From positions 1 through 45,331 of the forward strand of contig JABWBA010000021.1 in NCBI GenBank assembly GCA_013360745.1: a DNA stretch of 45,331 nucleotides, given 5' to 3'. The notes beneath the pieces were generated by a model, which saw nothing but the letters and a program-made list of their open reading frames with translations, did no database searches and had not been told where the DNA came from. The stretch comes from Chthonomonadales bacterium. GTDB lineage: Bacteria > Armatimonadota > Chthonomonadetes > Chthonomonadales > CAJBBX01. Below are positions 24,350-27,224 of the stretch, one piece after another. The position numbers and the translations under genes were made by a program. Positions within the stretch are counted from its first letter, which is position 1. The number at the start of each line of letters is the position of its first letter.

Positions 24350-25279
24350 TCAGAAGTGATCGAGCTCGTCGAAGAACGCTTCCGACGGCTCCGGCAGCGC
24401 GATGTCCGGCTGCAGGGATACCGCCATCGGGATAGCGCCTGATCGGGCTTCCACGTTCATGAACCCCGTCCGACGGTCCGGCCGCAGCCAGCCGCCCACC
24501 CTGTCGGCGCGCAGATCGGCCGCTCGGGCCCGGATCGTCGCCCAGATTCTCGAGGGTTCGACGCCCGGGGCCGCCCATTCGTGGACGCGCAGGCAAGTCT
24601 GATCCATGCCGACGTTGACGTATCCGACTTCCCGTGATCCATCGCAGAGAATATAATCGTCCGGAGCTCCGCGCCACCATCGGAAAAAGTCCCACCACAC
24701 GGGCGTTCGCGTAACGCCCATCGGTTGTACGAGGGCGGCCGCCCGATGCCAGTCTCGCAGGCGCTCCCGGTCCGATGGTCTCGCCCGTCGTATGGCCAGC
24801 CCGGGCGAGGCGGGCAGAGAGCCGACCGGCGCGGACCAATCGAGCGCCGGATACTCGCGGAAGCCATGGCGAGCGTAGTATGCCGGCGCAATATCGGAGA
24901 AGAGGAACGCAGACTGATACCCCCTAGCGCGCGCATCGGCCAGGAGACGCTCGATGAGGGCTGCGCCGATGCCCCGTCCCCGTAAATCGTCCCGGACATA
25001 GACCGCGGCGATTCCCATAGACCGTATCCGCACACCGTTGCATTCGATCCCGCCATCGAGCGCCCGGGCCGAGGCCGCGAGTGCGCCGTCCTCCGAGACC
25101 AGGCCCATGTACCGCATCTCCGAGCCCATCCGTTCAACTGCGCTCAGGACTCTCTGGACGTAGGGCTCCTCGGCCCGGCCCTGATGCCAGAACCGGTAGG
25201 TTTGTCGGCACGCTTCGAGCACGCCCGACTCATCGAGAACGGTCAGGCGCAGCGCATCTGGAGTTATGGGACGATGCAT
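24350..25279 (-). CDS. GNAT family N-acetyltransferase, two-domain
   Basis: 309 residues from the ATG at 25279 (HRPITPDALRL). The acetyl-CoA site is in the first half: VYVRDDLRGRGIGAALIERLL, with the R-G-x-G-x-G type loop, followed by FLFSDIAPAYYARHGF, a common GNAT ending. The second half (from about 180) is less conserved and resembles the Eis-like two-domain group. The acceptor is unknown. No strong SD precedes this ATG. A longer form from 25366, with CAGG seven bases upstream, would add 29 arginine- and serine-rich residues. It is convergent with the phosphoesterase gene with 19 bp between them. Confidence 0.85.
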   Translation of the reverse strand: MHRPITPDALRLTVLDESGVLEACRQTYRFWHQGRAEEPYVQRVLSAVERMGSEMRYMGLVSEDGALAASARALDGGIECNGVRIRSMGIAAVYVRDDLRGRGIGAALIERLLADARARGYQSAFLFSDIAPAYYARHGFREYPALDWSAPVGSLPASPGLAIRRARPSDRERLRDWHRAAALVQPMGVTRTPVWWDFFRWWRGAPDDYILCDGSREVGYVNVGMDQTCLRVHEWAAPGVEPSRIWATIRARAADLRADRVGGWLRPDRRTGFMNVEARSGAIPMAVSLQPDIALPEPSEAFFDELDHF

Positions 25280-25495
25280 CCGAACAAGGATACCCGTCGG
25301 CGCCGAGCGCCCAACCGCTCTGGAGTGCCTCGCTCCTAACCGGACCGAAGGGGATCGTTGCCTCATGAAAGAACCTGACGGTATCCGTTGGCTCACGCCG
25401 GGGCGTAGCCGTTGGAGATGAGGCCGACCATGCCTGGGAACGTCCGATCGCCTTCTCCCGGATGCCCGCCTCGGCTGCGGCTCACGCTGATCGGA

Positions 25496-25858
25496 TTACT
25501 GGTATTCCACAACGAGCGCAAGCGCAGTGACGATCTCCTGCATGATATCGGCGGTCACCGCCCCAATCCGGTCGATGAAGCGCTGCACATCCACGCTGCG
25601 GACCTGCAGAACGTCGACCGCTGAGGGCTTCGTCAAGCCGTTGCTGGCGGTTGGGTCGATGCGCACGTGCCACAAGTCGCGCGTGAAGTGGGGCTGCCAT
25701 CCCGTAACCGGCGCGACCAGCTTGATGGGAAGTTTGCCGACGGCATCCGAACTGATGATAACGGCCGGACGCGCCTTCTGGATCTCAGAGCCGACAGTCG
25801 GGTCAAAGTTGATGCGCCACACCTCCCCGCGACTCGGGCCGAGGGCGCTAGTAATCAA
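25496..25858 (-). CDS. MazF/PemK family endoribonuclease toxin
   Basis: 120 residues. MazF/PemK toxins cut mRNA at short sequences. RGEVWRINFDPTVGSEIQKARPAVIIS is the classic N-terminal region; LVAPVTGW, DVLQVRSVDVQRF and the C-terminal helix complete the fold. The only reasonable start is TTG at 25858, with GGGGG eight bases upstream. Its first 11 bases overlap the end of the XRE-ImmA gene, so translation is coupled. No separate mazE-like gene lies before it. The tail of the overlapping protein seems to take that role. The gap of 216 bp to the GNAT gene shows no supported gene. Confidence 0.92.
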   Translation of the reverse strand: MITSALGPSRGEVWRINFDPTVGSEIQKARPAVIISSDAVGKLPIKLVAPVTGWQPHFTRDLWHVRIDPTASNGLTKPSAVDVLQVRSVDVQRFIDRIGAVTADIMQEIVTALALVVEYQ

Positions 25859-27023
25859 AGATATCGCCCCCGTACAGCTCCCGCCACTCGGTATCCCGAT
25901 CGTAGCCCTCCGCAACCTTCGCGGCATATTCCGTGAGCGCGCGGCGACGCTCCGCAAGGGGCAGCCTCATGAGTGCGCGCCGCTCCACCAGCGATAAGGG
26001 CTGGTCGATCTCGATGATCTCGCCGAGCATTTGTTCGGCCTCTTCGCGTCCCATGTGCCCCTCGGCCAGGGCGCGTAGAACCGTCCGTCTGAGCCACTGC
26101 GGCTGCTCCGCCGGCAACCGATCGGGCTCGTCGTTTCGGTAACCCATGCGATTGATGTTGATGCACCACTCGCGGTAGTGTGCCTGCGTGATGATGTCGA
26201 GATCGTGGAGGCGTCTGAGCAGGGCCTGCAGGCTCATGCCGAAACGCCGCTTGAGCAGCCTGAGTTCTGTGAGCTGGATATTTCGGCGCCTTGAGCCCAC
26301 CGCACGCCGTACCGCTTCCGCGGGCGCGAGGAAGGCGCCTGCAAAACGGAACGCGGCCTTCTCCTCATCGATCTCGTCCACTACATGGAGCGCCAGATGC
26401 CCCAGTTCGTGAGCCAGGTTGAGGCGCTGGCGCTCTCCAGGAAGCCCGGCGCGCGTGACGATGGCAGCGCAGACGATCGCGCTTGACTGGTCAAGGACGA
26501 CTGCAGAGAGACCGTCGAACTTCTCGTCAGTCTCGATCTCGATGACATGTACGCCATGGTCTTCGAGGACACCGATGACGCTGGCGATCGGATCGGTGCC
26601 GAGGTTCCATCGTTCGCGCAGTTTCTGGGCAGCCGTCTCCGCGTCGCTGATGGTAGCCACCATGCACCTTTCGTCGGGCACGCCAGGCCCGTTGTCCAGT
26701 ACCGTTCTCTCCATGAGTCGGAGGCGCTCCTCAAGGGCAAGCTCAACGGTCGCCTGAACTTGCGCCCGGTCGCTCTTACGAAGGCCGGAGCCTTTCCGGT
26801 AGGCGATGAACCGGACCCTATAAACCGGCTCACGCCACAGAGCCGCGGCGGGCGTGCGCAGAGCGCTGGATAGCTTCGCCAGAACGAATGCCGACGGCCG
26901 TGCCTTGCCCTGCTCGTACTTCCAGAGCGCCTGACGAGTGACGACGCCGCCCAGCTCCGCTGCGAGCTCCTGAAGTGAGAGCCCACGAGCAAGACGCGTC
27001 TGTTTCAGGCGTTCGCCAATCAT
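25848..27023 (-). CDS. XRE regulator with ImmA/IrrE metallopeptidase and antitoxin-like tail
   Basis: 391 residues. The ATG at 27023 has GGAGG six bases upstream. Residues 1-60 are an XRE helix-turn-helix (IGERLKQTRLARGLSLQELA, then VTRQALWKYEQGKARPS). The middle is an ImmA/IrrE domain (COG2856) with the zinc motif HELGHLALH at about 215. ImmA/IrrE proteases cut repressors. From about 305 a GRISR-like helix region and then SLVERRALMRLPLAERRRAL, with the last residues DTEWRELYGGDIFDY, closely resemble the small antitoxins that stand directly before MazF/PemK genes in other bacteria. This likeness is from memory, not a search. The protein therefore may bind its own operator, neutralise the toxin through its tail and carry a protease that could release it. 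Confidence 0.85.
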   Translation of the reverse strand: MIGERLKQTRLARGLSLQELAAELGGVVTRQALWKYEQGKARPSAFVLAKLSSALRTPAAALWREPVYRVRFIAYRKGSGLRKSDRAQVQATVELALEERLRLMERTVLDNGPGVPDERCMVATISDAETAAQKLRERWNLGTDPIASVIGVLEDHGVHVIEIETDEKFDGLSAVVLDQSSAIVCAAIVTRAGLPGERQRLNLAHELGHLALHVVDEIDEEKAAFRFAGAFLAPAEAVRRAVGSRRRNIQLTELRLLKRRFGMSLQALLRRLHDLDIITQAHYREWCININRMGYRNDEPDRLPAEQPQWLRRTVLRALAEGHMGREEAEQMLGEIIEIDQPLSLVERRALMRLPLAERRRALTEYAAKVAEGYDRDTEWRELYGGDIFDY

Positions 27024-27059
27024 GGAAGTCCTCCATTCCATAGTCGGCCATTAGTTTAC

Positions 27060-27089
27060 AACTGTATCAGTTAATATACTATATGTCAA
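27060..27089 (-). promoter_or_regulatory. Promoter and palindromic operator of the XRE-ImmA/MazF pair
   Basis: On the minus strand TTGACA (27084-27089) and TACAGT (27061-27066) are separated by exactly 17 bases. A 13-bp palindrome, AACTGTATCAGTT (27060-27072), covers the -10 box, the right place for repression by the HTH protein encoded downstream. The segment is a short AT-rich island in GC-rich DNA, which may mark acquired sequence. Confidence 0.8.
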
Positions 27090-27224
27090 CTTGCACTCCA
27101 CGGAGCCGCGGGATCGGGCCGCCTCCGCTGCCGTGCCCCTGCCGCCGATGGGGCATCGTGGTGTAGACTCTCTGTGTCCGGCTCCGCGAGGAGCCTCGCT
27201 CAATATATTCCGGAGGACCGCTGC

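What the first reader, a model, noticed from the sequence alone, without database searches (positions are those of the whole stretch)
25848..27089. XRE-ImmA/IrrE protein fused to an antitoxin-like tail and coupled to MazF/PemK
MazF toxins normally follow a small antitoxin gene. Here the preceding gene is a 391-residue HTH plus HExxH metallopeptidase protein whose C-terminus (about 344-391, ending EWRELYGGDIFDY) looks like the small antitoxins that stand before PemK/MazF genes. The TTG of the toxin overlaps its last 11 bases. Regulator, protease and antitoxin in one chain would permit triggered release of the toxin by self-cleavage.
Basis: partly seen in the sequence, partly recalled or inferred. 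Interest (0 to 1): 0.8.

Follow-up and report, generated by a model that had tools for sequence, protein, structure and literature searches.

The report
Sensor-protease antitoxin guarding a MazF toxin
This bacterial gene pair makes an RNA-cutting MazF-type toxin and, instead of the usual tiny antidote, one large protein that joins a gene switch, a stress-sensing protease and the antidote tail; the same design recurs in about ten bacterial phyla, so stress sensing and toxin control may be wired into one molecule.

Summary
Window 25848-27023 (-) encodes a 391-residue HTH + M78 (ImmA/IrrE, HELGH) protein whose gene overlaps a PemK/MazF toxin gene (25496-25858) by 11 nt. The tail (about 339-391) is not a general ImmA C-terminus: it is homologous to small antitoxins that precede PemK genes with the same 11-nt overlap, on several unrelated N-terminal domains. 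Core relatives paired with PIN toxins lack it. Of 26 complete cores next to PemK, 22 carry the tail by profile and the other 4 have a comparable extension; 0 of 30 next to PIN carry it. The fusion recurs in about ten phyla. Zinc ligands are conserved in 26/26. A palindromic operator at the promoter is shared across partner types and occurs once in this 3.3-Mb genome. Most likely it is a type II toxin-antitoxin operon in which an RmrA/VapB52-like core represses its promoter and senses stress while an exchangeable tail neutralises MazF. Triggered self-cleavage is untested here but published for a PIN-paired relative (ssDNA, FR motif); the window has YRK at that junction. New variant of a known kind.

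The parts
27053..27091 (-). Promoter/operator: inverted repeat AGTTGACA-N23-TGTAAACT enclosing the -35 (TTGACA, 27089-27084) and the -10 (TACAGT, 27066-27061)
   Evidence: Motif conserved upstream of PemK-, PIN- and zeta-paired relatives (34 of 86 ORF upstream regions; 0 in shuffles); unique in the 3.3-Mb genome.
25848..27023 (-). HTH-M78(ImmA/IrrE)-tail antitoxin, 391 aa, ATG start
   Evidence: PADLOC RmrA 2.2e-52 over residues 4-333 only; NCBIfam spr1629 antitoxin below its cut-off; AlphaFold mean pLDDT 84.3.
26829..27023 (-). N-terminal XRE helix-turn-helix domain (residues 1-65)
   Evidence: Pfam HTH_3 6e-12; Foldseek to SinR, C.BclI, DdrO, ImmR HTH domains.
26793..26801 (-). Y75-R76-K77 at the HTH/peptidase junction, at the place of the VapB52 FR (F75-R76) self-cleavage motif
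   Evidence: R76 in 24/24 and Y/F75 in 23/24 PemK-paired cores that cover the site; VapB52 motif from PMC13273310. Its use here is inferred.
26151..26660 (-). M78/ImmA-IrrE metallopeptidase domain (about residues 122-291)
   Evidence: Pfam PF06114 2.1e-12; nearest solved relatives VapB52 9vzy, IrrE 3dte, CapP 7t5t, PprI 8slm.
26397..26411 (-). Zinc motif HELGH (H205, E206, H209); presumed third ligand E221 at 26361-26363
   Evidence: H205, H209 and E221 in 26/26, E206 in 25/26 PemK-paired cores.
25851..26009 (-). Antitoxin tail, residues 339-391: helices 345-352 and 356-376, then a disordered end
   Evidence: shared with standalone PemK antitoxins; pLDDT about 74 in the helices, below 50 for 379-391.
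25848..25858 (-). 11-nt overlap of antitoxin and toxin genes
   Evidence: Same 11-nt overlap in fused (L019, L029, L034, L035, L038, L063) and standalone (L020, L021, L022) forms.
25496..25858 (-). PemK/MazF-type toxin, 120 aa, TTG start
   Evidence: PF02452 2.5e-26; solved MazF relatives; R30 and T52 invariant among 13 relatives.

Best explanation
This is a two-gene type II toxin-antitoxin operon built from two exchangeable halves. The 5' half (operator, HTH, M78 peptidase) is an RmrA/VapB52-like regulator and sensor that represses its own promoter. The 3' half is a cassette of toxin-binding tail plus MazF/PemK toxin. In growing cells the tail holds MazF inactive and the HTH keeps the operon low. 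[quoted passage not shown] This derepresses the operon and weakens the hold on the toxin, so MazF cleaves RNA and growth stops. Shown here: domain make-up, tail homology, tail-toxin covariation, conserved zinc ligands and YRK motif, conserved operator. Inferred from family knowledge: neutralisation by the tail, autorepression, RNA cleavage. Inferred by analogy only: ssDNA trigger, self-cleavage, toxin release and defence role.
For: Tail alone matches standalone antitoxins directly upstream of PemK. Fused form conserved in about ten phyla. Tail/partner association: PemK-paired 22/26 with tail, PIN-paired 0/30; Fisher p 3.9e-12 for PemK against all others, 4.7e-4 after excluding 19 loci used to build the tail profile or found by or with it. 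PemK-pairing needs about 4 changes on the core tree, at least 3 on starred branches. Toxins of fused and standalone types interleave. Zn ligands 26/26, YRK site 23/24. Operator shared by PemK-, PIN- and zeta-paired loci and unique in the genome. Nearest solved peptidase relative is VapB52, shown to self-cleave on ssDNA (PMC13273310); Foldseek's top hits are CapP and ssDNA-bound PprI.
Against: No function was tested. Relation to VapB52 is distant (profile E 2e-5, peptidase domain only). VapB52's cysteine-switch residue is absent from the 210-220 loop. A cut at YRK would leave the tail on the peptidase fragment, so toxin release needs an extra step. The tail-toxin interface was not modelled. Most relatives come from metagenome-assembled genomes; some copies are decayed (L030, L037, and the standalone L020, L022, L064).
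Confidence: 0.7

Rival explanations
1. Ordinary MazEF-like module: the tail neutralises MazF, and the antitoxin is degraded by host proteases (Lon, ClpXP). The M78 domain is only a scaffold or sensor and does not cut the chain.
For: Classical MazEF works this way (established knowledge). RipB, an XRE-ImmA antitoxin, depends on ClpX (PMC12795458). NetFlax describes linear exchangeable neutralising elements with sensory partners (PMC10440598).
Against: Zinc ligands conserved in 26/26 and catalytic E in 25/26 PemK-paired cores, unexpected for a mere scaffold; VapB52 peptidase is active.
Confidence: 0.25
2. One reading: the peptidase cuts between peptidase and tail, so the tail is lost or stays on the toxin as a short unstable peptide.
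For: The tail is a distinct, flexible C-terminal element (pLDDT below 50 at 379-391) joined by a variable linker.
Against: No conserved motif in the linker around 335-345. The only conserved candidate site known from a relative is at 75-77.
Confidence: 0.15
3. The peptidase cleaves another protein in trans (as IrrE cuts DdrO or CapP cuts CapH), and the MazF pairing mainly stabilises the locus.
For: IrrE, ImmA and CapP act in trans (PMC10904395 and PMC13273310).
Against: No second repressor gene was seen next to the operon; HTH and peptidase are fused in every complete member found.
Confidence: 0.12

Closest known systems
VapB52-VapC52 of Mycobacterium tuberculosis (PMC13273310; PDB 9vzy)
   Same: N-terminal HTH, M78 peptidase middle domain, toxin-facing C-terminal domain; FR-type motif at the HTH/peptidase junction; toxin encoded next door. 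Best solved relative of the peptidase domain.
   Different: Toxin is a PIN tRNase, not MazF; its four-helix C-terminal domain covers a PIN active site, whereas the window tail matches PemK antitoxins; it has a cysteine switch, the window does not; sequence similarity is distant.
RosmerTA (RmrA/RmrT; RipAB of pneumococcus), XRE-COG2856 antitoxins
   Same: Antitoxin core matches PADLOC RmrA at 2.2e-52; the family pairs with diverse toxins (PMC10440598; PMC2701414).
   Different: PADLOC has no model that matches the PemK toxin. The papers read name PIN, RelE and membrane toxins; none describes a MazF partner or a MazF antitoxin tail on this core.
MazEF / PemIK modules
   Same: PF02452 toxin; overlapping upstream antitoxin gene; C-terminal toxin-specific segment after an N-terminal DNA-binding domain.
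   Different: Antitoxin is 391 aa with XRE-HTH + metallopeptidase instead of about 80 aa with AbrB or RHH.
IrrE/PprI-DdrO and CapP/CapH
   Same: M78 peptidase fold (Foldseek hits 7t5t and 8sln) activated by ssDNA in those systems.
   Different: They cut a separate repressor; here repressor and peptidase are one chain with a toxin-binding tail.

Membership tests
RosmerTA | RmrA-type antitoxin: HTH + ImmA/IrrE peptidase | tested here: met
   PADLOC RmrA 2.2e-52 over 4-333; Pfam HTH_3 and PF06114
RosmerTA | Cognate RmrT toxin as modelled in PADLOC | tested here: not met
   No PADLOC hit for the toxin; it is PemK. Hence 'RmrA-like', not a RosmerTA member
RosmerTA | Antiphage activity | not testable with these tools
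   Needs plaque assays
MazEF/PemIK type II TA | PemK/MazF toxin domain | tested here: met
   PF02452 2.5e-26; MazF chains in PDB
MazEF/PemIK type II TA | Adjacent overlapping antitoxin gene with a toxin-specific C-terminal segment | tested here: met
   11-nt overlap; tail homologous to standalone PemK antitoxins
MazEF/PemIK type II TA | Small AbrB or RHH antitoxin | tested here: not met
   XRE-HTH + M78, 391 aa
MazEF/PemIK type II TA | Toxin cleaves RNA and is neutralised by the antitoxin | not testable with these tools
   Needs expression assays
VapB52-like ssDNA-triggered self-cleaving antitoxins | HTH + active-type M78 (HExxH + E) | tested here: met
   H205, E206, H209, E221; conserved in 25-26 of 26 relatives
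VapB52-like ssDNA-triggered self-cleaving antitoxins | Aromatic-Arg motif at the HTH/peptidase junction | tested here: met
   Y75-R76-K77; 23/24 PemK-paired cores
VapB52-like ssDNA-triggered self-cleaving antitoxins | Cysteine switch in the active-site loop | tested here: not met
   No Cys in the loop after HELGH in the window; present in one PemK-paired relative, L057, and in L054 (toxin lost at contig end)
VapB52-like ssDNA-triggered self-cleaving antitoxins | ssDNA-dependent self-cleavage | not testable with these tools
   Biochemistry needed

The most novel reading that the evidence does not exclude
A widespread TA architecture in which one chain is operator-binding repressor, nucleic-acid-sensing self-cleaving protease and MazF antitoxin, made by plugging a tail+toxin cassette onto a conserved operator+HTH+protease cassette. 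MazF would then be switched on directly by DNA damage or phage ssDNA, without Lon or Clp.
Probability: 0.4. Interest if true: 0.75.

Novelty: new variant of a known kind. Interest (0 to 1): 0.6.

Why it matters
How type II toxins are switched on is a long-standing dispute. Here a candidate sensor-protease is covalently attached to a MazF antitoxin tail and conserved with its zinc site across many phyla, so activation becomes directly testable with point mutants (HExxH, YRK) in one protein. The same core carries PIN, PemK or zeta toxins behind one conserved operator, which shows antitoxin modularity at a defined joint.

Tried and rejected
(1) Tail as a general ImmA C-terminus: rejected; PIN-paired relatives end about 11-29 aa after the core in most cases. 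(2) Significant tail hit in Pfam, NCBIfam or PDB: none. (3) Single-chain tail-toxin model by reading through the stop (TAGC=S): not accepted by the structure tool and not pursued; no interface model. (4) Viral contigs with A1: no relative; PemK hits in phages are distant, 26-35%. (5) Whether the different tail of the zeta-toxin-paired relative L003 matches zeta antitoxins elsewhere: no independent hit; left as a resemblance only. (6) A generic palindrome score upstream was uninformative; the spaced repeat seen by eye was then tested. The motif was derived from the loci printed, so the independent support comes from the other loci and from its uniqueness in the genome. (7) The independent-pairs test on the core tree had too few pairs to decide. 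(8) Literature: searches found no description of MazF with an ImmA-fused antitoxin; the library is open-access only.

Full report
1. The observation. The minus-strand ORF 25848-27023 (391 aa, ATG) and the TTG-started toxin ORF 25496-25858 are as described, with an 11-nt overlap. Pfam finds HTH_3 (6e-12), Peptidase_M78 with HELGH (2.1e-12) and, for the second gene, PemK_toxin (2.5e-26). PADLOC gives RmrA, the antitoxin of RosmerTA, at 2.2e-52, but only over residues 4-333; the toxin has no PADLOC hit. The tail has no significant Pfam or NCBIfam match. The own genome has one copy of each gene.

2. What the tail is. The 53-residue tail used alone finds a second fusion in the same phylum (L019, 55% identity, 1.2e-14), a 78-aa standalone antitoxin (L020, 4e-9), an 85-aa standalone protein (L013, 4.5e-9), and, in plasmids, a DUF2283-tail protein of Gloeothece (4e-9) and a 75-aa protein of Chroococcidiopsis (weak, E 0.1). 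L020, Gloeothece and Chroococcidiopsis overlap a PemK gene by 11 nt, as in the window. A tail profile adds standalone forms with RHH or other N-termini next to PemK: L053, L061, L062, L064, L066, L067 (Pfam RHH_1 and DUF2283). Exceptions are L013 and the weak hit L065, with no PemK beside them. So the tail is the toxin-specific end of a PemK/MazF antitoxin family that has been put on several N-terminal domains.

3. The fusion is a conserved system. A genome scan with the fused protein returned 13 loci; 11 have the whole fusion followed by an overlapping PemK: Nitrospirota (2), Gammaproteobacteria, Acidobacteriota, Omnitrophota, Ignavibacteria, Chlorobiaceae, BRH_c32, Verrucomicrobiota (antitoxin with a TGA inside the tail), a delta-proteobacterium and another proteobacterium. 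Profile searches of 291 own-phylum genomes and 251 genomes of the phylum of a Chloroflexales MAG added more. Most are metagenome-assembled genomes, so single assignments may be wrong.

4. Tail and toxin go together. After removing duplicates and incomplete cores, 26 cores have PemK next: 22 carry the tail by profile; two more (L099, L102) align by eye, and L073 and L082 have unrecognised extensions of 49 and 43 aa. Thirty cores have a PIN toxin next and none carries the tail. Fisher p for PemK against all other cores is 3.9e-12; it stays at 4.7e-4 when the 19 loci that trained the tail profile, or were found by or with it, are left out. Rows are related, so the tree matters: PemK-pairing needs 4 changes on the core tree and at least 3 on starred branches. 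On the toxin tree the window toxin is nearest by path to the toxin of the standalone Chroococcidiopsis pair, and fused and standalone toxins are mixed (many branches weakly supported). L003, 43% identical in the core, has a different tail and a zeta-type toxin (PF06414 2.2e-8).

5. Protease, cleavage motif and operator. In the 26 PemK-paired cores H205, H209 and E221 are invariant and E206 is present in 25; R76 is in 24/24 and Y/F75 in 23/24 that cover the site. The cores were selected by similarity to a profile, which favours conserved residues. Upstream regions hold an inverted repeat RGTTKACA-N22-24-TGTMAACY, in 34 of 86 ORF upstream regions against 0 in shuffles, for PemK-, PIN- and zeta-paired genes alike. 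In the window it encloses the -35 TTGACA and the -10 (27053-27091) and it is the only such site in 3.3 Mb. The motif was first seen by eye in some of these loci.

6. Structure. AlphaFold gives a confident core (blocks mostly 85-96) and a tail of two helices (about 74) with residues 379-391 below 50, as expected for an element that folds on its toxin. Foldseek's best PDB matches are CapP and ssDNA-bound PprI (E about 1e-3). By profile, the nearest solved relative of the peptidase is 9vzy, which is VapB52. A tail-toxin model was not obtained.

7. Mechanism. VapB52 of M. tuberculosis is an HTH-peptidase antitoxin whose C-terminal domain (357-415) covers its PIN toxin's active site and whose peptidase, activated by ssDNA, cuts its own chain, probably at an FR motif (F75-R76) between HTH and peptidase; the N-terminal domain is needed for toxin binding (PMC13273310). 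The window has Y75-R76-K77 at this junction and an exchanged C-terminal element. The best explanation is therefore an RmrA/VapB52-like sensor-repressor refitted with a MazF-specific tail. Not explained: a cut at 75/76 leaves the tail attached, so either HTH loss weakens the complex as in VapB52, or derepression matters most, or there is a second cut. The cysteine switch of VapB52 is missing here, so the trigger may differ.

8. Novelty. XRE-COG2856 fusions near PIN and RelE toxins were noted in 2009 (PMC2701414); NetFlax described the ImmA hub and exchangeable neutralising elements (PMC10440598); RipAB and VapBC52 give function. None of the papers read describes a MazF partner or a MazF antitoxin tail on this core. 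New here are that pairing, the tail-toxin covariation and the shared operator. It is a new variant of a known kind.

Noticed in passing
window 27053-27091; upstream of L003, L004, L024, L029-L036, L056, L098-L105 and others: Operator RGTTKACA-N22-24-TGTMAACY shared by RmrA-type genes regardless of toxin partner; could serve as a search handle for this family.
   Followed up: partly
L003:934-2538 (-): Same core with a different tail and a zeta-type toxin downstream; the tail found no independent relatives.
   Followed up: partly
L030 (toxin), L037 (tail), L020, L022, L064 (toxin): Copies with an in-frame stop or broken toxin/antitoxin frame: decayed TA copies or assembly errors.
   Followed up: no
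L026, L027, L028, L004: PIN-paired relatives lie near genes often seen in defence islands: ThiF/E2/multiubiquitin, nucleotidyltransferase, patatin-like phospholipase, a restriction-specificity-like ORF.
   Followed up: no
L111-L113, L084, L085: Five PIN-paired cores lack HExxH, so the peptidase can be lost with PIN partners; this was rare with PemK (L082 only).
   Followed up: no
window 24350-25396 (-): GNAT acetyltransferase gene 100 nt downstream of the toxin on the same strand; probably unrelated.
   Followed up: no
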